Assembly (NCBI RefSeq): GCF_009711975.1
Contig: NZ_VIKW01000002.1
Coordinates: forward strand, 270,307 to 328,895
Origin: Anabaena sp. UHCC 0204
Lineage (GTDB): Bacteria; Cyanobacteriota; Cyanobacteriia; Cyanobacteriales; Nostocaceae
Direction: 5' to 3'
DNA length: 58,589 bases
In this document: positions 18,205-29,993 of the stretch, one piece after another
Numbering within the stretch: the stretch's first letter is position 1
How the letters are laid out: each line of letters begins with the position of its first letter
Notes under the pieces: model-generated
What the model was told of the DNA's origin: nothing
Database searches by the model: none
Seen by the model: only the letters and a program-made list of their open reading frames with translations
Position numbers and translations under genes: made by a program

Positions 18205-20373
18205 TTAATTATTCCAAAACTTAACTATTTGTCTCAGTTCTTCCATATCTAAATAATCATAAACAAACGCTTTTCTTAAAAGTGGATAAGGAATAAACTG
18301 ATCATACTTATTAATTTCCGGTGCTTCTGCTTCACTAACTAAATGTTCTGGAGAAATTCTTTGTTCACATAAAGACAAAATTTCTGGATAAACAGATTTA
18401 AATTTATCTTTTCCTAATTTTAAAATTAAATAATAGGGATTTACACCACCAATATTCCTAATTTCTAAAGATTCTCGACAAAAGGAATTTAACAATCTTT
18501 CCAAAGTCCGATAAGCTACTGTACCCAACCAAGGAAAAATACAGCATTTACCATTTTCTAATAACAAAATATTGTTTTTATCTAATTCATATTTTCTTGC
18601 TAATTCACAAACTGCATTTAACCTTTGTTGAGCATTTTTTTGTAAATAAGCATAGTTCTTATCCTCTAATAAAACCTGCCGCATTCTTTGTAAAATTTTA
18701 CTATGAATAATACCACCACCACCACGCCAATAAATAGTAGCTTTACCCTCAAATTGCTTAACAAGAATAGTTCTTTTTTTAAAATCAACTTCTAATACTT
18801 CCCAACTTTTACCGGCTAAAGAAAATTGACTACCCACCGCAGGAAGGATCACAATACTCCCAATTTCTGTTCCTCCATGTTTAACTTTATATTCTTGACT
18901 CTCAGCGAAAACTGCATAAAATTGAAATCTATTGACTATCTTTTCACCAGCTAAACCAATCATTAATTTACCTTGTTCAGTTTTTTGAAGATGATTAATA
19001 TCAATTAAATAACGTAATAATAATAAATAATCATCCTTAGCAAAATTAGCAAATGGTGAAAGTTGGAAAATTTCCTTAGCAAGTGCAGCCGGAGAAATTT
19101 CTCCTTTAGCCGCTAAAATACTCATAGTTTGATGATATAATAAACTTAAAGGATATTTAATCGGTTTTATTGGTTCAATCCAACGTTCTTCTAAATAAAG
19201 CTGAATAATTGCAATAGATTGTAAAAGTTGCCAAGGAATTTGTTCCGGTAAAGAAGCCTCTGATAATGGTTTTTCTTCTCCACAAATAAACCGCATATCA
19301 GCAGATTCACCTCTTCTCCCACTCCGTCCTAATCTTTGTAAAAAACTAGCAACAGATAAAGGTGATTCTAATTGAATAACTCTTTCTAACTCACCAATAT
19401 CTATGCCTAATTCCAGAGTTAAAGTTGCCGCAGTCACAGCCGGAGTATGAGGTTCACGCATAGCATTTTCCGCAGATTGTCGTAAACTAGCAGATATACT
19501 ACCATGATGAACATGATATATATCTGGAAATCCTTCTGTTTTGGCTATTTGACGCAATGAAGAAATAATAGATTCTGTTTGAGTGCGATTGTTAGCAAAT
19601 ATCAGACATTTACGAGATTTACTTAAATTAAAAATATAATTATCATAGTCTGATTCTTCAATTTCCTGATCAATATAAAAATGTTCTACAGCTAATTTCA
19701 CTTGGCGGTTTCCGGCTTCTAGCTTTGGCGTAATTACAGATTTATTTGTTCCTGAACTTAACCAAGATTCCGCCATTGAGTAATCACCAAGAGTTGCGGA
19801 TAAACCAATACGTCGAGGTTGAGTTTGAGTTAATTTTTCTAACCGCTGTAATTGACAAATAATTTGACAACCCCGTTCTGAACCCATGAAAGCATGAATT
19901 TCATCAATAATCACAAACTGCAAATTACCAAATAACCGAATAAGTTCCTGGTGTTTATTAATTAATAAACTTTCTAGAGATTCTGGAGTAATTTGGAGAA
20001 TACCTTGGGGATTTTTTAAAAGTTTGTGTTTACGACTTTGATTAATATCACCGTGCCAAGAACATACAGATATATCTGCGGTCTTTAGCAAATCGTTGAG
20101 GCGAGTAAATTGATCATTAATTAAAGCTTTAATAGGACTAATATACAATACATTTATCGTCCTTGTTGGCTTTTGATATAATAAGGTTAATATTGGTAAA
20201 AATGCTGCTTCCGTTTTTCCCGCAGCCGTAGCAGCCGCAATTAGTAAATGAGCATCCGTATTAAATATAACTTCACAAGCGGCAATTTGTACAGGTCTTA
20301 ATTCTGTCCAATTGTGAAGATAAATATATTCTTGAATAAAGGGTGCAAGTTGAGAAAATGTGTTGTTGTTCAT
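18205..20373 (-). CDS. Lhr-like superfamily 2 DEAD/DEAH helicase
   Basis: 722 residues. Walker A is AATAAGKT (about 47-54); motif Ib is TPESLES, motif II DEIHAFMG, motif III GLSATLGD, and motif VI QRLGRSGRRG. The C-terminal 300 residues resemble the winged-helix and beta-barrel parts of Lhr-type helicases, ending in a region I cannot name. It probably unwinds or remodels nucleic acid. In the genomes I know, helicases like this often sit with a DUF2791/BrxD-type ATPase and a TerB-domain protein. Here both partners are nearby on the same strand, separated from it by an opposing kinase gene. An individual DNA-repair role is also possible. Confidence 0.75.
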   Translation of the reverse strand: MNNNTFSQLAPFIQEYIYLHNWTELRPVQIAACEVIFNTDAHLLIAAATAAGKTEAAFLPILTLLYQKPTRTINVLYISPIKALINDQFTRLNDLLKTADISVCSWHGDINQSRKHKLLKNPQGILQITPESLESLLINKHQELIRLFGNLQFVIIDEIHAFMGSERGCQIICQLQRLEKLTQTQPRRIGLSATLGDYSMAESWLSSGTNKSVITPKLEAGNRQVKLAVEHFYIDQEIEESDYDNYIFNLSKSRKCLIFANNRTQTESIISSLRQIAKTEGFPDIYHVHHGSISASLRQSAENAMREPHTPAVTAATLTLELGIDIGELERVIQLESPLSVASFLQRLGRSGRRGESADMRFICGEEKPLSEASLPEQIPWQLLQSIAIIQLYLEERWIEPIKPIKYPLSLLYHQTMSILAAKGEISPAALAKEIFQLSPFANFAKDDYLLLLRYLIDINHLQKTEQGKLMIGLAGEKIVNRFQFYAVFAESQEYKVKHGGTEIGSIVILPAVGSQFSLAGKSWEVLEVDFKKRTILVKQFEGKATIYWRGGGGIIHSKILQRMRQVLLEDKNYAYLQKNAQQRLNAVCELARKYELDKNNILLLENGKCCIFPWLGTVAYRTLERLLNSFCRESLEIRNIGGVNPYYLILKLGKDKFKSVYPEILSLCEQRISPEHLVSEAEAPEINKYDQFIPYPLLRKAFVYDYLDMEELRQIVKFWNN

Positions 20374-20486
20374 AGCTATTGGAAACAGGCTGAAATTTAA
20401 ATTTGATTATTTGCTTGCGTAATATTACTGTGGCATAGGCAGAAGTAGTAAAATTATAAAAGTACCAAAGCTATACAGTCAGCGAT

Positions 20487-21884
20487 ATGACAAGTCAAAA
20501 TCCTGGGAACTCTGCAAAGGAAATATTATTGGAACGCTACGAGGTGCAGCAGCAACTCGGTAAAAAAGCAGGAAGACGAACTTTACTAACCCGTGATTTA
20601 CAAACGCAAGAACTGGTGGTAATTAAACTGCTATCATTTGATGATGACTTTCAATGGGATGACTTGAAACTGTTTGAACGGGAAGCAGAAACCCTCAAAG
20701 CAATTTCTCATCCAGCAATTCCCCACTATTTAGATTATTTTGAGTTAGATACACCTGAATATAAAGGATTTGCACTAATACAAAGTTATATTCCGGCTGA
20801 ATCTTTAGAAACACAAATAAAAGCAGGACGGAGTTTTAGCGAATCTGAGGTGAGAGAATTAGCAAAAGCAATTTTAAATATTCTCACCTATTTACATAAT
20901 CGTCAACCTCCTGTAATTCATCGTGATATCAAACCCAGTAACATCCTATTAACGAATCGTTCTGGTAATAGTGTTGGTGATGTTTATTTAGTAGATTTTG
21001 GTTCGGTGCAAACTATTGTCAGAAGCAATAGTACCATGACTGTTGTTGGTAGTTATGGATATATGCCACCAGAACAATTTAGTGGTAAAGCTACTCCTGC
21101 TTCTGATCTTTATGGTTTGGGTGCAACTTTAATTTATTTAATCACAGGTCAACACCCAGCCGATTTACCACAAGAAGACTTAATCATTAAATTTGAACAA
21201 GCGGCTAATGTTAGTCCTGGTTTTAGTAATTGGTTAAGGAAAATGACAGAACCTATGTTAAGTAGAAGATTGGGTTCTGCGGAAAAGGCTTTAAAAAGTT
21301 TAATTTTTTCCAAAAAGCAAATTCCCATTTCCGTAAAATCAGCTAATTTATATTTAGGAAAGCCTGTTGGTAGCAAAGTAATTTTAAATAAGGATGATGA
21401 TTTTATAGAAATTATTATTCCACCAGCTAGGGGATTTCCTATAGTATTAGTAATGTTGAAGTGGTATTTTCTCGCCAGTATATCACTTTCTTTTACTATA
21501 GCAATTGTACCTCTTTTGCATATGATGTTTGCACCTATTATAGCTCCACTTAATTTCCTGATATTATTATTAATAATATCTATTTGTTTATTTGGGAGGA
21601 AAAGAATTTATATCAATAAGAGACAAATCTCTTTGAGTCATGAATTATTTTCTATTAATCGTCATCAAATTCGTCCTAGTCTCAGAAAAAATATTATTCG
21701 CTTAGAAAGAACTAATATTTACCATAATAATGAGCCTCGTCCATGTTTAATTATCTGGGCAGGAATGCTAAAATATGAAATTTTCACGGGTAGAGATAAG
21801 GCTTTTGCTGTTACTACCATCGAGTTAGATTGGTTAGCTGAAGAACTTAGTAATTGGCTAGATTTACCAGTTATTAGAGAGTAA
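20487..21884 (+). CDS. Membrane-anchored Ser/Thr protein kinase
   Basis: 465 residues. The kinase domain spans about 18-290: ATP-binding Lys47 in VVIKLL, catalytic loop HRDIKPSN (Asp147), metal-binding DFG at 170-172, and MPPEQF in place of APE. The glycine-rich loop is degenerate (LGKKAGRRT lacks GxGxxG). Two hydrophobic segments at about 315-375 anchor the C-terminus, followed by a domain of about 90 residues with an RxxISLSHELFSI stretch that I do not recognise. It is transcribed against its neighbours and overlaps the 3' end of the P-loop ATPase gene by 11 bp. It may be an insertion between the helicase and ATPase genes, or a regulator of that module. Confidence 0.85.
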   Translation: MTSQNPGNSAKEILLERYEVQQQLGKKAGRRTLLTRDLQTQELVVIKLLSFDDDFQWDDLKLFEREAETLKAISHPAIPHYLDYFELDTPEYKGFALIQSYIPAESLETQIKAGRSFSESEVRELAKAILNILTYLHNRQPPVIHRDIKPSNILLTNRSGNSVGDVYLVDFGSVQTIVRSNSTMTVVGSYGYMPPEQFSGKATPASDLYGLGATLIYLITGQHPADLPQEDLIIKFEQAANVSPGFSNWLRKMTEPMLSRRLGSAEKALKSLIFSKKQIPISVKSANLYLGKPVGSKVILNKDDDFIEIIIPPARGFPIVLVMLKWYFLASISLSFTIAIVPLLHMMFAPIIAPLNFLILLLIISICLFGRKRIYINKRQISLSHELFSINRHQIRPSLRKNIIRLERTNIYHNNEPRPCLIIWAGMLKYEIFTGRDKAFAVTTIELDWLAEELSNWLDLPVIRE

Positions 21885-23202
21885 ATTCTGCGGCATCATT
21901 ATCATCTAAACTACTATCTTTTCCCGTAGCAGTGGGTTGGAATTTAGAACCATGAATTAATTCGGAAAATTTAATTTTCGGATTTTGATAGATCACATTC
22001 AAAACACTAATAAAATCTCGGATAATTTCCCCTGGTGTGAGTAAAGCTTCAGCACCCAAGCGAGTGATAATTTCTTGAATAAATTCCTCTAGTTGGGAAT
22101 TATTTAAAGTTTTGTCATAACCAAGATTAAGAGCATGAATTTCTGTCAATCGTTGTAGAAGTGTGAGAATTTCTGTTGCTGTGAGGGGGTTAAGGCGAAT
22201 AACTGGCCCCATATATTCCTGAACACCAGCTTGGGTAGAAAAACGGCTTTCTTTTGTGCGTCTGCGCCAAGCTTGGTCAGCAAAAAGCCCTCGATTTGGA
22301 TCTTCTAAAAACTTTGTTGTTCCCCCAATGAAAATACCTAAATTTTCGGCTTTACATTGCATAGTGTCGTTAAACATTGCCAAAAGCCGATTATAGTTTT
22401 TTTCACGGGTAACTGTTGGAGATATTTGGTACAAATTTACAGCTTCATCTAAGAAAATTAATATACCTTTATAGCCAATTTCAGCCACAAATTTAGCTAA
22501 TAATTTGATGTAATCATACCAACTATCATCGTCAATAATAACACGCACTCCTAATGCAGCTTTAGCTTCTGTTTTAGTATTAAATTCACCTCTTAACCAG
22601 CGCAAAGACGCATTTTTCAAATCATCATCATCTAGGCGATAACCGCGCCAATATGCAATTATTACACTACCAAAATCAAAGCCATGAACTAAGTCTTCAA
22701 TATATTGAATGACTTCTCTAATTTTGGTTTCTACTTTGTCATCAAAACCGTCATCATTGGGACGCATTCCTGTTTCTTGAGCTACTTCTTGCTGAATTTT
22801 ATTAATCCAACCTTCCAAAATAGAAATTAATGCTCCACCGTCAGGACGAGTTTTTGTAGCGAGATGACTCATTAATTCTCGATAGGTTGCTAAACCTTCG
22901 TTATGACTTCCTGCTAGTCGGTGTTGAGAGGATAAATCAGCGTCAGCAACGACAAATCCTTGCTCCATGGCGCGGTTACGAATCATTTGCAACATGAAGC
23001 TTTTTCCTGAGCCATAGTTGCCAATTATAAAGCGAAATGCAGTGACACCTTCTGCTATATCATTGAGATTTTGTAAAAGGCTATTAAGTTCTTGTTCTCT
23101 ACCTACTGCTATATGTTCAATTCCTATTCTAGGGACTACTCCAGCACTAAGAGAATTAATTAAAGCAGTGGATATTTTTTTTGAAAGTTTAAGTTTTGTC
23201 AT
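21874..23202 (-). CDS. BrxD-like P-loop ATPase (BREX ATP-binding / DUF2791 type)
   Basis: 442 residues. Walker A is in IIGNYGSGKSFMLQ (about 60-67). A Walker B-like stretch is GILIFLDEAVNLYQ, with the sensor-like FIGGTT and a basic AWRRRTKESRF patch downstream. The start VPRIGIEHIAVGREQELN and the WLRGE segment are the pattern I associate with the BrxD/DUF2791 family, which occurs in type 2 BREX and in stand-alone helicase/TerB islands. No PglZ or BrxC is present here, so this is not a complete BREX system. Its partners are probably the Lhr-like helicase downstream and the TerB-C protein upstream, all on the minus strand. Confidence 0.7.
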   Translation of the reverse strand: MTKLKLSKKISTALINSLSAGVVPRIGIEHIAVGREQELNSLLQNLNDIAEGVTAFRFIIGNYGSGKSFMLQMIRNRAMEQGFVVADADLSSQHRLAGSHNEGLATYRELMSHLATKTRPDGGALISILEGWINKIQQEVAQETGMRPNDDGFDDKVETKIREVIQYIEDLVHGFDFGSVIIAYWRGYRLDDDDLKNASLRWLRGEFNTKTEAKAALGVRVIIDDDSWYDYIKLLAKFVAEIGYKGILIFLDEAVNLYQISPTVTREKNYNRLLAMFNDTMQCKAENLGIFIGGTTKFLEDPNRGLFADQAWRRRTKESRFSTQAGVQEYMGPVIRLNPLTATEILTLLQRLTEIHALNLGYDKTLNNSQLEEFIQEIITRLGAEALLTPGEIIRDFISVLNVIYQNPKIKFSELIHGSKFQPTATGKDSSLDDNDAAEFTL

Positions 23203-23277
23203 GTAGTTTCAGGAATCAAGGAATTAAGGAGTCGTAGGGGCGTATCCCTGACGGGACTGGAAGCATCAGCATTCAGT

Positions 23278-23350
23278 GTAAGGGCGAAGCATTCGGAAAA
23301 TAAACTTGGGAAAAAACCGATAATTAATCACCCGAATGCTTCGCCCCTAC
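23278..23350. mobile_element. 73-bp MITE-like inverted-repeat element
   Basis: The ends GTAAGGGCGAAGCATTCGG and CCGAATGCTTCGCCCCTAC are near-perfect inverted repeats around an AT-rich centre. An element of the same 73-bp length and with the same termini lies inside mfd (47323-47395). A partial third copy of its right half follows at about 23355-23395. Confidence 0.7.
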
Positions 23351-23450
23351 TTGAAAAAAAACCGATAATTTATCGTCCGAATACTTCGCCATTACAGGAG
23401 TAGGAGGAAGGAGGAAGAATCAATAGTTTATTTCATAAGTATTTAGATTT

Positions 23451-24782
23451 TTAATTTTTGATTTCTGAATATTTGCTGATGATGGTTTTCACATTTAATA
23501 AATGTTCTTGAGCAATTTCGGGAATTTCGGTGTTGGTTTCGATGATTAATTCACCAATTGTATTATTGGCAATTTCATTAATAGCATCAATTAAAAGGTT
23601 GGGCATGGTAATATTGGCTTCGGCAATTTGTTTAATGGTAGCTTTAGGATTCTCTTGTTCCAAGATAGCTTGTAAGACTTGAATTTCCGAAGCTGGGAGA
23701 TTTTCTAAGAAATTATGCCACTCTGTGGGTAAATTGTCTAGATGTTGGTTTTCATGATCAACGAAATCTAATGGTTGTAGTAATTCATCAAAGGGAAATA
23801 AATCAATATTATCTTCATTGTCTTCTTCATTGCTTGTGGATAATGTTTCGGAATTAACTGTTTCTATTTGTTGGAGTAATTCCCAAACTTGATTTTGTAA
23901 CGAGTCTCTTTCATCTTGTAATAGGGAAATTTGGTTTTGTAGTTGATGACTTTCTGTTTGTTGGGCTAATGTTTTATTTTGTAAAGAATTAAGGGTATTC
24001 TCTAAATTTTCTTTTGTTGTAGTTGTTTGTGCTATTAACTCATGTTGTTTAGAGATTTTCAGTTCCTGATTTTGAGATTCTATTCTTAGTTCATAGAGTT
24101 TTTCTTCTAATTGAGGTTTGAGTCTTTCTAAAAGAATGACATCGTTTTCTAGTTCTTGTTTTTCTTTTTTAAGAACATCAATTTGAGGTTGTATTTGGTG
24201 AAGTTCGGCGCGGGATACATTGCAACTCAATTCTAATTTCCGTTTTTCGGAGATGAGATTATTACAATTATTATTCAGTTCTATATTACTATTTTCTAGG
24301 TTTGTAAATTCATTGGTGAGGTTATAAATTTCAGTTTCAATTTGCTTTTTTTGAGCAGCTAAATTACCTATATCTCGATGTAGACTGTCTCTTTGACTAC
24401 GACAATCACCAATTTGATTTTCTAGCTGTTGAGTTTCTGTATACAATAAATTTCTATATTCTTCTAATTGCTGCATTTCCCTAACAAGACGGGATTTTAA
24501 TCCTTCTATATCTCGGATACGTCTATGAAGAGAACCAATCATTCTCAGTTCATCAGTTCGGCGACGTTTCTCGACCAGAAATGCGGCTGAATATGTGGCT
24601 AGAACTGTAATTATTCCGGTTAAAAAGGCTTTAGGAAAATCCCAGTTGGGGACAAGACTTAAACCAAAACTTACACTAAATGCAGCTATTCCTAGCACGA
24701 TTCGATAACTAACTATTGTTGGTTGCACCTTGCTAGATTTTAGTGTAGTTAAGTTGTTAGAATTACTAGTAATTAAAGTCAT
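23451..24782 (-). CDS. Membrane coiled-coil protein with TerB-C-like C-terminal domain
   Basis: 443 residues. Two hydrophobic segments near the N-terminus (YRIVLGIAAFSVSFGLSLV, then AFLTGIITVLATYSAAFLV, about 27-70) are followed by a long coiled coil (about 85-305) rich in Glu, Gln, Leu and Asn. An acidic spacer leads to a C-terminal domain of about 80 residues. That domain (LPASEIQVLQAIL, MPNLLIDAINEIANNTIGE) matches my memory of the TerB-C domain found in tellurite-resistance-associated and helicase-linked stress systems. It probably scaffolds the module at the membrane. It lies upstream of the BrxD-like ATPase on the same strand, with a MITE between them. Confidence 0.6.
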   Translation of the reverse strand: MTLITSNSNNLTTLKSSKVQPTIVSYRIVLGIAAFSVSFGLSLVPNWDFPKAFLTGIITVLATYSAAFLVEKRRRTDELRMIGSLHRRIRDIEGLKSRLVREMQQLEEYRNLLYTETQQLENQIGDCRSQRDSLHRDIGNLAAQKKQIETEIYNLTNEFTNLENSNIELNNNCNNLISEKRKLELSCNVSRAELHQIQPQIDVLKKEKQELENDVILLERLKPQLEEKLYELRIESQNQELKISKQHELIAQTTTTKENLENTLNSLQNKTLAQQTESHQLQNQISLLQDERDSLQNQVWELLQQIETVNSETLSTSNEEDNEDNIDLFPFDELLQPLDFVDHENQHLDNLPTEWHNFLENLPASEIQVLQAILEQENPKATIKQIAEANITMPNLLIDAINEIANNTIGELIIETNTEIPEIAQEHLLNVKTIISKYSEIKN

Positions 24783-24852: not shown

Positions 24853-26202
24853 TTATGACTCAGAAATGATATTGTTATTGTCGCCAAAAACGGCTAAATC
24901 TGCTTTTAAAAAGTCTACAAATTGTCTGGCGGTTCTGCCAGAACGTCCATTATGATGGGTTGCCCATTGTAAAGCTTTGAATTCTAAATCTTGGGGGGAA
25001 ATATTGATATTTGCTGCTAGGTGCTGGACTATTTGTAAATAGGTTTTTTGATCTGCTGCTTCAAAGGTTAATGTTAAACCAAAGCGATCGCTAAAAGATA
25101 ATTTTTCTTGCATTGTATCCCACCCATGAACTTCCTGATTATCCTTGGGATTTGGTCTATCAGTGAAATATTCCCGGATTAAGTGGCGACGGTTAGAAGT
25201 AGCATATACAACCACATTTTCGGGTCTGGCAGTTACATTTCCTTCTAAAACTACTTTCATTGCTTTAAAGGTATCATCATCTTCTTCAAAGGAAAGATCA
25301 TCTACAAAGATAATAAATTTCTGGGGAACTCCTCGCAACTGTTCGACAATTTTGGGTAAATCTGGCAACTCTGATTTAGACACTTCTATTAGGCGCAAGT
25401 TTCTATGACTGTACTCATTTAACAAGGCTTTAACTAAAGAAGACTTGCCTGAACCACGGCTACCATAAAGTAATACGTGCAGTGCTGTTTCTCCTGACAA
25501 TAAAAACTCTGTATTTTTTACTAAAGCATCTTTTTGCCACTCGTAACCTACTAGTGTAGACAGTTTCACGGAATCAGGATAGGCAATACCCACTAATTGC
25601 CCACTTTGCCAACGAAAAGCCGGATATTGGGCAAATAAACCAGTTCCATGTAGTTGATAATAAATGGCTAAATCTTCTACAGCATCACCCCAATTATCTA
25701 ACTGGGGAATAGATACCATTAAACCTGTCTCTATCCCTACTGCTTCTGGTTCTCGATACCAAACGACGGGAGAAATAGGTAAATGAGTAGCCATTTGTAC
25801 CCATTCGCTCAGAACTGCACTATTACATTCATACAAAGTTTGTAATATTTGTAAGTCATGTTTGACAGCAGCTACTAAAGCTGGGGGTAATTGACTAAAT
25901 TCCTGCTGTTGCGCCAATTTGGTAAACGGATTATCTGCAATCAGGATTTGTTTAATTAGGTATTCTTCCCAGGTTTGATGACTACTGGCTAAAGCTTGAA
26001 AATAACTACCATAAGCTTGGAGGCAATCCCGCCCATCTACATCAGCATAACGGATGGTTTGTAATAGGTTGAGAAAGGTGCTACCCACTTCACTTGCCAA
26101 GATAGATTGGTACAGTAAAAGGGAGGCAGCTTGGCGTTGCAGAAATTGAACTGTTGTATAAGATGTAGAATTTGCCGTAGGCATTGCTAGATGATCCATC
26201 AA
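24853..26202 (-). CDS. DUF815-family AAA+ ATPase
   Basis: 449 residues. The AAA core has Walker A in LYGSRGSGKSSLVKALL (about 245-253), a Walker B FIIFVDDLSFEED, sensor YATSNRRHL and an RSGRTARQF arginine patch near the end. This is the layout of DUF815 (COG2607) ATPases. The N-terminal 220 residues are helical with no named domain. The role is unknown; the family is widespread in cyanobacteria as a single-copy gene, so it may not belong to the neighbouring module even though it is on the same strand, 70 bp upstream. Start ATG at 26202; a second ATG lies one codon in. Confidence 0.8.
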   Translation of the reverse strand: MMDHLAMPTANSTSYTTVQFLQRQAASLLLYQSILASEVGSTFLNLLQTIRYADVDGRDCLQAYGSYFQALASSHQTWEEYLIKQILIADNPFTKLAQQQEFSQLPPALVAAVKHDLQILQTLYECNSAVLSEWVQMATHLPISPVVWYREPEAVGIETGLMVSIPQLDNWGDAVEDLAIYYQLHGTGLFAQYPAFRWQSGQLVGIAYPDSVKLSTLVGYEWQKDALVKNTEFLLSGETALHVLLYGSRGSGKSSLVKALLNEYSHRNLRLIEVSKSELPDLPKIVEQLRGVPQKFIIFVDDLSFEEDDDTFKAMKVVLEGNVTARPENVVVYATSNRRHLIREYFTDRPNPKDNQEVHGWDTMQEKLSFSDRFGLTLTFEAADQKTYLQIVQHLAANINISPQDLEFKALQWATHHNGRSGRTARQFVDFLKADLAVFGDNNNIISES

Positions 26203-26816
26203 TCAACTGGGTAAATTATCTCTCACCATGAATTTAAGTATAATGGTGACTTTTGACTATGGCATTTTTATCTTGGTTGGCAGGATTTTAGTCAAGTTTC
26301 GTTAGTACATTAATATTAATATAGAATGGTTATTTTCAGATAATAGTGAGTTAGAACACCCGTGAGCAGTAATTTAAAACTTATACCTACAGGAATACAA
26401 GTGTAGCGATTTATATATTAAAGTAGAGAGGATTGGGGATAGTAGTAAAATAATACTGATAACATTCAGGCTAAATTACTAACATACCCAGGGGAAACAT
26501 GGATCACTGACTACCATAAGTAACCATTGTTTCCGGTTGATATCTACTACCAATCATTTCTGGAACAGTAATGTTGTTATTCAAGGTGCAAAGCTCTACT
26601 ACAGATATTGTAAAGATTTTATAGTTTCTTCCGTAGACTAGAAAGTAAAAAAATAGCTAATATTGCCATTTTGGCAGGTCTTTCCGACACAAATGGGATA
26701 TTAGTAGATAGTAGCAAAAGTTCGTAAATTTTTTACCATTAACTAAGAACTGCTACAGCCATCTCAATCTTGACTGTGGTCATTCTTTAGCCATTTAAAT
26801 AACTAGGAAATAATTC
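26203..26816. other. 614-bp intergenic region between divergent DUF815 and kinase genes
   Basis: No gene found. The longest small frames are 25 codons (ATG at 26228) and 17 codons (ATG at 26571), neither with a clear ribosome site or a leader/core peptide pattern. The region should contain two divergent promoters. Only AGGAAA (about 26804) before the next gene is a usable signal. Confidence 0.4.
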
Positions 26817-28055
26817 ATGTTATCATCACTATCTTCTCAAAATGTTATCCAGTATCTGCAACAGGCAGGGCTGTGTAGCTCAGAAGATGGCGCTGCATAT
26901 AAATCTGTATTGCCAGAAAATAGCAATAAGAATTGGAATTTACTGGTAATGCTGGCAGATAATCGCCAACTGCTCATTAAACAAGAACGTAAAATTAATA
27001 GTGATCACAATTCCCACGAATTTTTTAATGAGTGGCTATTTCATCAGTTATTACAGAAATTTCCCGTAATTGGGAATATTGGCGCGATCGCTTCATCATT
27101 GCTGCACTTTGATGAGAAGAATTCTATCCTTGTACGGAGCTACTTAAGCGAATATCTGGAACTAGGAAAGTTTTATGATCACAGCAGTATTTTTCCTCCA
27201 GAAATAGCGATCGCTATTGGTACTACGTTAGCAGGATTACATCGAGCTACGTTTAATAAACGTGAGTATCGTGATTTTATGGCTACTGCTCCCGCAGGAG
27301 AGTTTCGCTATAATTTTTACAATCCTGCCCAAGGTATACCATCAATAACTCCAGAAACATTTGGAACAATTCCTACTGAGGCGCTACAATTTTATCGTCT
27401 TTATCAACAATACGAAAGTTTAGAATCGGCAATTGCTGATTTAGCTTACGAATGGAAACCTTGTTGTTTAACTCATAACGATTTACAGTTAAGCAATATT
27501 TTGGTTCATTCTCGATGGGAACAGCTAGATAACTGCTTAGTACGGCTGATTGACTGGGAAGCTTGCGCGTGGGGAGATCCGGCTTTTGATTTAGGAACTC
27601 TGTTAGCAAGTTATTTAAGAATTTGGCTTTCTAGTCTGATCGTTGATCCAACATTAGAGTTAGAAGAATCTTTGAATTCAGCCATGATTCCTCTAGAAAT
27701 CTTACAACCTTCAATCCTGGCTTTAATTCGGGCTTATCTTGATGCTTTTCCCATGATTTTAGAATATCATCGGGACTTCATTATGCGGGTAATTAAGTTT
27801 ACGGGTTTGGCATTAATTCAACAGATTCAAAACAGAATGGAATGCCAAAAATATTTTGATCATAGTCATGTGTGTATGTTCCAAATTGCTAAAAATTTAT
27901 TGATAATGCCAGAGCAATCTGTATTAACTATTTTTGGCATATCTGAATTAGAAATTTTCCAATCTGTCGCCAGACTTCAAAAACTTCCCCAGCCAGACAA
28001 GGAACAACAATTAGTCCGCCTTTATTACGAAAAAACTCGTCTGCGGGGTTGTTAA
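26817..28055 (+). CDS. APH-fold phosphotransferase, possible Ser/Thr kinase of a lyase pair
   Basis: 412 residues of the aminoglycoside/choline kinase-like fold. The catalytic loop is LTHNDLQLSNIL and the metal-binding motif is LIDWEACAWGDPAFDLG. The N-lobe has NRQLLIKQERK as the likely ATP-lysine site. It is followed 147 bp later by a HopA1-family gene on the same strand. APH-fold kinases paired with HopA1-like lyases act together on Ser/Thr in class V lanthipeptides (LxmK/LxmY) and thioamitides (TvaC/TvaD). The pairing suggests peptide or protein phosphorylation followed by elimination. A small-molecule kinase role cannot be excluded. Confidence 0.7.
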   Translation: MLSSLSSQNVIQYLQQAGLCSSEDGAAYKSVLPENSNKNWNLLVMLADNRQLLIKQERKINSDHNSHEFFNEWLFHQLLQKFPVIGNIGAIASSLLHFDEKNSILVRSYLSEYLELGKFYDHSSIFPPEIAIAIGTTLAGLHRATFNKREYRDFMATAPAGEFRYNFYNPAQGIPSITPETFGTIPTEALQFYRLYQQYESLESAIADLAYEWKPCCLTHNDLQLSNILVHSRWEQLDNCLVRLIDWEACAWGDPAFDLGTLLASYLRIWLSSLIVDPTLELEESLNSAMIPLEILQPSILALIRAYLDAFPMILEYHRDFIMRVIKFTGLALIQQIQNRMECQKYFDHSHVCMFQIAKNLLIMPEQSVLTIFGISELEIFQSVARLQKLPQPDKEQQLVRLYYEKTRLRGC

Positions 28056-28076
28056 CTAATATGGTTCTTTATGTTC

Positions 28077-28167
28077 AGGACTTACGCACAAGTCACGAAA
28101 GAACGAACCACGAAGGAACGAAGAACACGAAGAAAAGAGAGTTTCAGAGATATTTTGCGTAAGTCCT
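28077..28167. mobile_element. 91-bp MITE-like element (AGGACTTACGCA ends)
   Basis: AGGACTTACGCA at 28077-28088 and TGCGTAAGTCCT at 28156-28167 are perfect 12-bp inverted repeats. The centre is rich in ACGAA repeats and non-coding. It sits inside the kinase-HopA1 gene pair. I have seen the same termini in many cyanobacterial intergenic regions. Confidence 0.65.
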
Positions 28168-28202
28168 AATGTTTACATATATATTTTTCTGAAGTTTGAG
28201 GT

Positions 28203-29300
28203 GTGAATGTTTTGATGCTTGAAGACTCTACCAGCCAAATCGTAAATTCATTGTTCGATATTGCCAGTAATATCCAGATTGAACCTAATTTTTGTATTTA
28301 CCATCCTCATTATCAACCTTTTGCTTTACCCGCTACTGTGGCAAATAGGTTTCAACAAAATTCACCCTCTCTACAACAGAAGTATTTGAACATACTTCTG
28401 CGGAATTTCCTTTATGGTATTTATTATAATGGCTCACTGCAAACAGTTTTAGCAGCAAATAGTCATAATTATCAACCACAGCTAAATTCAATTGAAAATA
28501 ATAGCTTGGGTGTAGATGGAGATTTTTATGAACAACTGCATCATCATAATCATGGTACAGGCAATTATGAACCCAATTGGCAGGTTTTGAGAATTGAACC
28601 TGATGGGAGTATGGCAGTTATTAAAAATGGTTTAACATTATATATTGAGCCAGAATGTCATCTTAAATCCCGGAAAAAGTCTCCTAAAGTTGGGGAATTA
28701 ATAGCAATATGGATGCCTAAAAATCGCCTCCAAAATGGCTGTTATGTGGCAGTAAGTAATATGGGTGTAGAAAGCCAAAATCCCCCAGAACATACTGATT
28801 TGACAGTGGGACGGATTTATTTTAATGTGACATCAACGGGAGCGATCGCTCTCATGGATAGCTTAACAGAAGCATTAAATAACGCCAAAATTCCTTTTAG
28901 TTTTCAGGTTCTTTATAATCCCGCTGCCTATGGGCGTTATGATGCCGGTGTACTGCACTTTGAACGCCTAGACTATCCCACAATTCGGACTATTCTGCGA
29001 GAGATTTATCAACAACATCAAGCCCATTTTCAATCAGAAATACCCTTATTTACAAAATTTTTAGCACCGGGTTTAGGTTTAGCAGAAGAACCAAATCAAA
29101 AATTTGCCCCTCAAGAAAGCTTTGGCATGAACCGTTGTCAAATCGTGGCCAATGCCTTATTGGAAGCGTGGGATAAAGGTAAAAATGCCCTTGAAGAACG
29201 GATAGACATGATCAATCAACACTTTGCCCAACACCTGATTGACGTGCAGCATCCTTATCTTAATCCTGCCTCTAATGACATATATCAGCCGTTAAATTGA
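28203..29300 (+). CDS. HopA1-family protein, possible phospho-Ser/Thr lyase
   Basis: 365 residues. The C-terminal two thirds contain the segment order I associate with the HopA1 (type III effector) family: NWQVLRIEPDGSMAVIKNG, YIEPECHL, VGELIAIWMP, RIYFNVTSTGAIAL, and KIPFSFQVLYNP leading to RYDAGVLHFER. In class V lanthipeptide and thioamitide clusters, HopA1-like proteins remove phosphate from phospho-Ser/Thr to give dehydro-residues, working with an APH-fold kinase such as the one just upstream. Here the substrate is unknown. The frame starts at GTG 28203, just after GAGG; an ATG at 28215 with a longer spacing is an alternative. No type III secretion genes are visible. Confidence 0.65.
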   Translation: MNVLMLEDSTSQIVNSLFDIASNIQIEPNFCIYHPHYQPFALPATVANRFQQNSPSLQQKYLNILLRNFLYGIYYNGSLQTVLAANSHNYQPQLNSIENNSLGVDGDFYEQLHHHNHGTGNYEPNWQVLRIEPDGSMAVIKNGLTLYIEPECHLKSRKKSPKVGELIAIWMPKNRLQNGCYVAVSNMGVESQNPPEHTDLTVGRIYFNVTSTGAIALMDSLTEALNNAKIPFSFQVLYNPAAYGRYDAGVLHFERLDYPTIRTILREIYQQHQAHFQSEIPLFTKFLAPGLGLAEEPNQKFAPQESFGMNRCQIVANALLEAWDKGKNALEERIDMINQHFAQHLIDVQHPYLNPASNDIYQPLN

Positions 29301-29361
29301 TTTTTGAGAGATTTAATCATCCAGAAAGCGTTACCCTAGATCGTAAAGTTCAGGGATAATT

Positions 29362-29925
29362 ATGACACTGGAAGAAATAGCAGGGACGTTAGCAGAGTTA
29401 TTTAGTGCTGAAGTTGTAAAATCTATTGCCCCTGGATCTTGGCAAATCGAAACTGCTGATTTTCGCTTGTTGGTACTGCTTTCAGAAGATAATACATGGT
29501 TACGGATCTTACTGCCAATTATGCCTTTGCAAGAAGCTGAACCATTTTTAAAACAGGTTCTAGAGGCTAACTTTGATGACACCCAAGAAACTCGCTATGC
29601 TTTATATGATGGGGTAGTCTGGGGAGTATTTCAGCATAATAGCGGCACTTTGGTGAATGCGGATTTTGCAAATGCGATCGCTCGTCTAATTTCATTGTAT
29701 CAAGCAGGTGTCAATGATGTTTTCAATAATCTAGTAGAAACCCGTATCCGCGAAATTATTCAAGCTGCAAAACAACAGGGACAATCTCTAGAAGCAACTA
29801 TGCAGAATCTAGATCGTTTTTATGCAGAAGGATTATTAGGAGATATTGACCAAAATCCCCAGGGTAGAGAACAAGTTTTAGCAGCTTGGCGGCGACGATT
29901 AGAAAGTCTTTGGGGTGAACTGTAG
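29362..29925 (+). CDS. CesT/YbjN-like (type III chaperone-like) protein
   Basis: 187 residues. The N-terminal 115 residues look like an alternating beta/alpha fold (SWQIETADFRLLVLLSED, WLRILLPIMPLQEAEPFL, RYALYDGVVWGVFQHNS, DFANAIARLISLY) similar to CesT/YbjN-type chaperones. The C-terminal 70 residues are helical. It follows the HopA1-family gene by 61 bp on the same strand and may bind or stabilise that protein, as CesT-type chaperones do for effectors. This is a judgement from pattern only. A heptamer repeat array begins right after its stop. Confidence 0.4.
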   Translation: MTLEEIAGTLAELFSAEVVKSIAPGSWQIETADFRLLVLLSEDNTWLRILLPIMPLQEAEPFLKQVLEANFDDTQETRYALYDGVVWGVFQHNSGTLVNADFANAIARLISLYQAGVNDVFNNLVETRIREIIQAAKQQGQSLEATMQNLDRFYAEGLLGDIDQNPQGREQVLAAWRRRLESLWGEL

Positions 29926-29930
29926 TAATT

Positions 29931-29993
29931 AGGTGACAGGTGACAGGTGACAGGTGACAGGTAATAGGTGATAGGTGATAGGTGATAGGTAAT
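29931..29993. repeat. AGGTGAC/AGGTAAT heptamer array
   Basis: Nine heptamers: AGGTGAC four times, AGGTAAT, AGGTGAT three times, AGGTAAT. It lies directly after the CesT-like gene. The internal mix of variants shows how the arrays change unit by unit. Confidence 0.95.

What the first reader, a model, noticed from the sequence alone, without database searches (positions are those of the whole stretch)
26817..29925. APH-fold kinase, HopA1-family protein and CesT-like protein: a possible cyanobacterial dehydration module
An APH-fold kinase followed by a HopA1-family protein is the arrangement of kinase/lyase pairs that dehydrate Ser/Thr in class V lanthipeptides and thioamitides. Here a third gene with a type III chaperone-like fold follows, yet there is no cyclase, exporter or precursor peptide nearby. 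The set may modify a protein, or a peptide encoded elsewhere, which would be new biology.
Basis: partly seen in the sequence, partly recalled or inferred. Interest (0 to 1): 0.75.

Follow-up and report, generated by a model that had tools for sequence, protein, structure and literature searches.

The report
Conserved kinase paired with silenced lyase
Most members of one cyanobacterial family carry a single gene pair descended from a peptide-dehydrating machine, but its second enzyme has lost the key catalytic lysine, so the pair probably adds phosphates and leaves them in place instead of turning them into dehydrated residues.

Summary
The kinase and HopA1-family genes are real; the three-gene module is not. 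The third gene follows HopA1 in none of 63 other loci and occurs in genomes lacking HopA1. The pair belongs to an orphan clade: one kinase copy in 187 of 192 sampled family genomes, dN/dS about 0.15. In 110 of 110 distinct window-type HopA1 proteins the catalytic lysine (CaoY K219) is Q, H, E or Y; it is K in the 28 other proteins of the same tree, including this genome's second copy, which sits in a peptide cluster with an exporter. Kinase catalytic residues are kept. Published CaoY K219A with CaoK gives only phosphorylated peptide. Best reading: a LanK/LanY-derived complex that phosphorylates Ser/Thr without elimination. The substrate is unknown: no leader peptide in 141 loci (42 of 10 kb or more), and none genome-wide in 26 of 35 genomes with this pair alone. 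The kinase has a clade-specific tail ending RLRGC. In other cyanobacteria, 12 degenerate-lyase loci keep an intact kinase; the 11 with a detected precursor have Arg-rich or Ser-rich, non-hydrophobic cores, hinting at phosphopeptides. Their Ser/Thr fraction, however, is not raised overall. Nothing was tested experimentally; both structure models failed.

The parts
26664..26676 (+). TGCCATTTTGGCA inverted repeat, conserved promoter element 153 nt before the kinase start
   Evidence: core GCCATTTTGGC exact in 33 and one base off in 6 of 39 distinct upstream regions; exactly one copy of the 13-mer in the own genome
26697..26713 (+). second conserved promoter block GATATTAGTAGATAGTA, more variable than the first
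   Evidence: mean column identity 0.89 over the 20-nt block starting at -120, across 39 upstream regions; several loci differ at more than one base
26817..28055 (+). LanK-like APH-fold kinase (412 aa); K55, E72, H220, D222, N227, D246, D258 present
   Evidence: Pfam/NCBIfam; residue survey; 187 of 192 family genomes
28011..28052 (+). clade-specific conserved C-terminal block of the kinase, residues 399-412, ending TRLRGC
   Evidence: terminal Cys in 109 of 111, L409 in 111 of 111 window-type kinases; absent from 16 of 16 cluster-type kinases; one pattern hit per genome in 6 genomes
28203..29300 (+). HopA1/LanY-family protein (365 aa), predicted inactive lyase
   Evidence: PF17914 5.8e-62; residue survey
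28302..28304 (+). codon of H34 (kept; equivalence to CaoY H57 is assumed, not shown)
   Evidence: H in 138 of 138
28812..28814 (+). codon of R204, aligned to CaoY R187 / LxmY R189
   Evidence: R in 87 of 110 window-type, 28 of 28 others; alignment to LxmY
28905..28907 (+). codon of Q235, at the catalytic-lysine position (CaoY K219 / LxmY K221)
   Evidence: Q94, H7, E7, Y2, K0 of 110 window-type; K in 28 of 28 others
28935..28937 (+). codon of R245, aligned to CaoY R229 (phosphate side), kept
   Evidence: R in 109 of 110
28956..28958 (+). codon of H252, at the CaoY Y236 position (Tyr lost here)
   Evidence: Y in 53 of 110 window-type, 28 of 28 others

Best explanation
The two genes encode a LanK/LanY-type heterodimer derived from a class V-like peptide dehydratase. 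The kinase is active and phosphorylates Ser/Thr. The HopA1 subunit keeps its phosphate-side residues (R245, probably H34) but has lost the base that removes the alpha-proton (K to Q/H/E/Y) and often the assisting Tyr and Arg, so the phosphate stays on. The pseudo-lyase then acts as partner, substrate clamp or phospho-site holder. Shown here: family membership, residue losses, conservation, absence of leader-type precursors. Inferred: complex formation, activity and substrate. The conserved kinase tail is probably a docking or regulatory element.
For: Base lysine absent in 110 of 110 distinct window-type proteins, which form one clade, and present in the 28 others; with groups set by locus and not by residue, 0 of 38 versus 17 of 17. 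Position fixed by profile alignment to LxmY (9dk1_B, 1.6e-8); LxmY's R-32-K, K-10-R, K-17-Y spacings (counted by hand) equal those of CaoY's published residue numbers; the window has 31, 10 and 17. CaoY K219A with CaoK yields only phosphorylated CaoA (PMC9486802 section 6). Kinase K55/H220/N227 in 111 of 111, D222 in 110, D246 in 105. Median dN/dS 0.146-0.165 for the two genes, below the cluster-type 0.22. One kinase copy in 187 of 192 genomes. Kinase and HopA1 distances correlate, r 0.89 over 98 loci. Elsewhere 12 of 12 degenerate-lyase systems keep the seven kinase residues, and the 11 with a detected precursor have non-hydrophobic cores, against hydrophobic cores in 29 intact-lyase loci.
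Against: No activity was measured and no substrate found. One genome (G015) keeps the kinase and tail without this HopA1. Six of 111 kinases lack D246 and one lacks D222. Ser/Thr content of the precursor cores does not differ between degenerate and intact lyase loci (medians 0.21 and 0.20, p 0.39), so the core pattern supports 'not dehydrated' better than 'heavily phosphorylated'. APH-fold kinases often act on small molecules (recalled). AlphaFold models were too poor to see the active site (pLDDT 42 and 46). The r of 0.89 is expected from shared descent and has no control.
Confidence: 0.5

Rival explanations
1. The kinase phosphorylates a small molecule or cofactor precursor, and the HopA1 protein is a structural partner; the neighbouring phylloquinone genes may hint at the pathway.
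For: The APH fold also matches choline-kinase families. In 17 of 37 distinct loci with a gene of 80 aa or more downstream, that gene is a same-strand thioesterase; menE is present in 18 and menF in 16 of 39 distinct loci (names checked in one locus).
Against: Closest curated model is LxmK, a peptide kinase. The men linkage is absent in the window and in about half of the loci (some on short contigs), so it may be mere position.
Confidence: 0.18
2. The lyase is still active with another residue as base, so Ser/Thr are dehydrated by a variant mechanism.
For: H34 and R245 are kept; H or Y replaces Lys in 9 of 110; clade-specific conserved residues exist, such as P133 and R175.
Against: 94 of 110 have Q, a poor base; Tyr and Arg are also lost in many; no clade-specific conserved Lys or His appears.
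Confidence: 0.13
3. The pair assists the genome's own Family 1A-type peptide cluster in trans.
For: The own genome has such a cluster.
Against: 26 of 35 genomes with one HopA1 have no Family 1A leader at E 0.01, yet all 35 keep the window-type kinase.
Confidence: 0.08
4. A decaying paralogue with no present function.
For: Catalytic residues lost; one HopA1 loss in the genus.
Against: dN/dS about 0.15, near-universal retention, conserved tail and promoter.
Confidence: 0.05
5. One reading: kinase, HopA1 and a CesT-like chaperone form one dehydration module.
For: Adjacency in this window only.
Against: Third gene unlinked elsewhere and present without HopA1; lyase base missing.
Confidence: 0.02

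Closest known systems
Class V lanthipeptide dehydratase CaoK/CaoY and LxmK/LxmY
   Same: Adjacent APH-fold kinase and HopA1-family partner; kinase catalytic residues; the carbonyl-side and phosphate-side Arg are kept in the window copy
   Different: Catalytic Lys is Q and Tyr is H; no precursor or exporter found nearby; extra C-terminal tail on the kinase
Cyanobacterial Family 1A HopA1/phosphotransferase peptide clusters (PMC8153245, passages read)
   Same: Same enzyme families; a cluster matching their description exists in this genome on another contig
   Different: No leader peptide in 141 window-type loci; no PpiC, HlyD or C39 exporter cluster seen in the fetched window-type stretches; inactive-looking lyase
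Thioamitide kinase/HopA1 pair TsaC/TsaD
   Same: Kinase plus HopA1 partner, required there for Thr dehydration (PMC8153245, passages)
   Different: No precursor found; lyase base missing (YcaO/TfuA partners were not searched for)
Pseudomonas HopA1 effector (named only; nothing fetched)
   Same: Shares the PF17914 domain
   Different: Context and target not examined here

Membership tests
Class V lanthipeptide dehydratase (LanK/LanY) | adjacent APH-fold kinase and HopA1-family protein | tested here: met
Class V lanthipeptide dehydratase (LanK/LanY) | kinase catalytic residues intact | tested here: met
   window copy has K55, E72, H220, D222, N227, D246
Class V lanthipeptide dehydratase (LanK/LanY) | lyase base Lys (CaoY K219) | tested here: not met
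   Q235 in window; 0 of 110 in clade
Class V lanthipeptide dehydratase (LanK/LanY) | score above curated LxmK cut-off | tested here: not met
   70 bits against 315
Class V lanthipeptide dehydratase (LanK/LanY) | precursor peptide with leader nearby | tested here: not met
   0 of 141 window-type loci, 42 of them 10 kb or longer; window start sites; only Family-1A-type leaders were modelled
Class V lanthipeptide dehydratase (LanK/LanY) | Ser/Thr dehydration activity | not testable with these tools
   needs enzyme assay
Cyanobacterial Family 1A peptide cluster | GG-leader peptides and exporter genes | tested here: not met
   absent at the window pair; present at the second pair on contig C7
Three-gene module with type III chaperone-like protein | third gene conserved with the pair | tested here: not met
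   0 of 63 other loci; present in HopA1-less genomes
Three-gene module with type III chaperone-like protein | third protein has a CesT-like fold | not tested
   no fold predicted; sequence searches gave nothing significant
HopA1 injected effector | type III secretion context | not tested
   not searched for

The most novel reading that the evidence does not exclude
A peptide-dehydratase pair has been converted, once in the ancestor of this Nostocaceae-type family and apparently several more times in other cyanobacteria, into a phosphate-writing machine: active kinase plus phospho-binding pseudo-lyase. In the other lineages it would make an undescribed kind of secreted phosphopeptide with Arg-rich or Ser-rich, non-hydrophobic cores; in the window lineage it became a single-copy core cellular kinase complex, possibly acting on its own conserved tail, whose T-x4-C end has the spacing of the ring-forming Thr8 and Cys13 of thiostreptamide S4.
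Probability: 0.32. Interest if true: 0.82.

Novelty: new variant of a known kind. Interest (0 to 1): 0.68.

Why it matters
If true, a natural-product dehydratase was rewired into a phosphorylating complex that nearly every sampled genome of this family keeps, giving a natural counterpart of the K219A enzyme made in the laboratory. The related pattern in other cyanobacteria would predict peptide natural products that carry phosphates instead of dehydrated residues, and it tells genome miners that a HopA1/kinase pair alone does not mean lanthipeptide chemistry.

Tried and rejected
Three-gene module: rejected. AlphaFold of HopA1 and kinase from shallow alignments: pLDDT 42 and 46, so no fold search was run. 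Kinase profile against PDB sequences: no hit at 1e-4. An Arg-rich leader-type ORF of the own genome's second cluster (L003:15236-15463) as substrate: found in 7 of 43 genomes, only one of these (E 0.099) among the 35 with one HopA1, so rejected. Tail motif as a shared protein tag: one hit in each of 6 genomes, each at the kinase end (in G090 judged by its place just before HopA1). Promoter palindrome as a regulon marker: one copy in the own genome; 36 sites in 14 genomes, of which I looked at the 30 with a locus and saw no common downstream gene by eye apart from the kinase. NtcA-like pattern upstream in 10 of 39 regions, LexA-like in 3, a full HetR site in none, at simple-pattern level. Rfam on 26100-29950: nothing. 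PADLOC on the pair and third gene: nothing.

Limits: HopA1 sequences were reduced from 192 to 138 and kinases from 162 to 127 by identity of the last 250 residues, after length filters. The 15 stretches were chosen partly because they held fused or degenerate enzymes. Four of the 21 leaders in the profile came from degenerate loci. Of 34 intact-lyase loci (repeats included) two had no leader hit, L070 and L093; L070 has Nif11-type peptides instead. Only 42 of the 141 window-type loci are 10 kb or longer. Residue assignment in the degenerate proteins outside the clade rests on alignments at 29-49% identity. Mann-Whitney values are not corrected for shared descent. The tree was rooted by me on L213.
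Full report
WHAT IS THERE. The window holds an APH-fold kinase (26817-28055) followed after 147 nt by a HopA1-family gene (28203-29300). The best curated match of the kinase is LxmK, the class V lanthipeptide kinase, at 70 bits, far below that model's cut-off of 315. It follows HopA1 in none of the other 63 loci I scanned. It occurs in 31 of 41 genomes, including seven without HopA1, one of these weakly (E 6e-4). In three of eight fetched neighbourhoods it sits beside the ArsA gene, one of them in a genome without HopA1.

TWO KINDS OF PAIR. The own genome has two HopA1 genes. The second, on contig C7, sits with small ORFs (one with a clear Family-1A-type leader), PpiC, HlyD and a C39-peptidase ABC exporter, which matches the cyanobacterial Family 1A clusters of PMC8153245 (passages read). 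The window pair is different. Window-type kinases (E at most 1e-135) occur once per genome in 187 of 192 sampled family genomes and all 56 genera; four of the five without are G044, G073, G114 and G134, and the fifth, G161, is 54% complete. Among 388 genomes of the class, every listed match of 58% identity or more is in this family. Named relatives are Anabaena, Nostoc, Dolichospermum and others. HopA1 of either kind is in 190 of 192.

THE LYASE HAS LOST ITS BASE. CaoY uses K219 and Y236 for deprotonation, R187 for the carbonyl side and R229 (with H57) for the phosphate; K219A with CaoK leaves only phosphorylated CaoA, and R187A nearly abolishes elimination (PMC9486802, abstract, passages and section 6 read). 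Profile alignment to LxmY (9dk1_B, E 1.6e-8) covers this part and places the window's R204, Q235, R245 and H252 at these positions; the K-10-R and K-17-Y spacings are identical, and the R to K spacing is 31 instead of 32 (counted by hand). 9dk1 is the LxmKY crystal structure (PMC12141560, passages read). H34 as the counterpart of H57 is my assumption. With groups set by locus, Lys is present in 0 of 38 window-type and 17 of 17 cluster-type proteins. In the wider set of 138 distinct proteins, the 110 without Lys form exactly one clade (support 0.85; the next node, 0.997, adds one protein with Lys): Q94, H7, E7, Y2. The 28 others all have Lys. R204 is kept in 87 of 110 and Tyr in 53 of 110, while H34 is kept in 110 and R245 in 109.

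THE KINASE IS KEPT AND HAS GAINED A TAIL. K55, H220 and N227 are invariant in 111 window-type kinases; D222 is in 110 and D246 in 105. Median dN/dS is 0.146 for HopA1 and 0.165 for the kinase in near relatives, against 0.22 for cluster-type copies. Window-type kinases carry a C-terminal extension: L409 in 111, R410 in 110, C412 in 109 and T407 in 101 of 111, absent from 16 of 16 cluster-type kinases. The coding pattern of the last six residues occurs once per genome in six genomes; the six matches differ at third positions, so the protein is what is conserved. The T-x4-C spacing equals that of Thr8 and Cys13 in thiostreptamide S4 (PMC8153245 passages); seven clade members have Pro for Thr, which speaks against a required modified Thr.

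NO PRECURSOR. A leader profile found no candidate in 141 window-type loci, of which 42 are 10 kb or longer, and none below E 3 in the window. Genome-wide at E 0.01, 8 of 8 genomes with more than one HopA1 have Family 1A leaders, but 26 of 35 genomes with one HopA1 have none; all 35 have the window-type kinase. The pair is therefore kept where no Family 1A peptide was found. Peptides with other leaders were not modelled.

POSITION AND CONTROL. In 39 distinct window-type loci (short contigs included) the divergent DUF815 ATPase and TerB_C genes are found in 27 and the thioesterase in 22; menE is in 18 and menF in 16 (names checked in one locus). The promoter carries a palindrome core GCCATTTTGGC, exact in 33 and one base off in 6 of 39 distinct upstream regions, and a second, more variable block at -120. 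One genome (G015) has lost this HopA1 and kept the kinase with its tail.

THE PATTERN ELSEWHERE. Of 19 HopA1 proteins aligned from 20 further loci (one of them from the window's family), 13 have the intact residues and 6 do not. Adding stretches chosen for fused or degenerate enzymes gives 12 distinct degenerate loci; nine are single kinase-HopA1 ORFs. Pfam on five of these finds HopA1 above cut-off in all five and APH at or above cut-off in four. All 12 keep the seven kinase residues. Eleven have one detected precursor each; the twelfth lies at a contig end. Mean hydrophobic fraction of the core is 0.00-0.16 in these and 0.35-0.71 in 29 intact loci with precursors; Arg+Lys is 0.08-0.59 against 0.02-0.16. 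The one with low Arg is mostly Ser. Against a simple phosphopeptide story, Ser/Thr content is the same in both groups (medians 0.21 and 0.20, p 0.39). The core chemistry thus changes together with the lyase, but the number of target residues does not rise.

NOVELTY. Searches for HopA1 with cyanobacteria, Nostoc/Anabaena, phosphopeptides and class V lanthipeptides listed no paper whose title or abstract start describes a lyase-dead HopA1 clade or such phosphopeptides; only the listed papers were seen and only open-access papers are held. Supplementary data of PMC8153245, whose text speaks of 1,340 HopA1 proteins, could not be read here and may contain this clade without comment.

VERDICT. Ordinary as a gene pair, unusual as a system: a family-wide, single-copy kinase with a silenced lyase. 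The kinase-only reading is my best (0.5). Activity and substrate remain unknown.

Noticed in passing
L217, L218, L219, L220, L221, L222, L223, L224, L225, L201, L206 (unnamed cyanobacterial genomes): Kinase/HopA1 systems with degenerate lyase residues next to one Family-1A-type leader peptide with an Arg-rich or Ser-rich, non-hydrophobic core, most with exporter genes; possible phosphopeptide natural products.
   Followed up: partly
window 18205-24782: Genes matching the PADLOC Shango models SngC (7.8e-249), SngB (5.6e-177) and, weakly, SngA (1.8e-17), with a Ser/Thr-kinase-like ORF (20487-21884, named by eye) between SngC and SngB.
   Followed up: no
window 26664-26676: TGCCATTTTGGCA palindrome in the kinase promoter, single copy in this genome; some sites in larger genomes are also followed by GGTTTTT.
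   Followed up: partly
L069 (genome G015): Window-type HopA1 is gone with no remnant better than E 0.5, while the kinase with its tail and the downstream thioesterase remain.
   Followed up: partly
L070, L082, L083, L089, L090: HopA1 clusters with Nif11-type leader peptides and a radical SAM-like protein (both named by eye), most also with Family 1A-type peptides.
   Followed up: no
L003:15236-15463: Small ORF whose GG is followed by a run of Arg in the own genome's second cluster; hardly found in genomes with one HopA1.
   Followed up: yes
kinase residue 249: The residue after DWE is Arg in 15 of 16 cluster-type kinases, Ala in 35 of 39 window-type kinases and Lys in 12 of 12 degenerate-lyase kinases, a possible marker of product type.
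   Followed up: no
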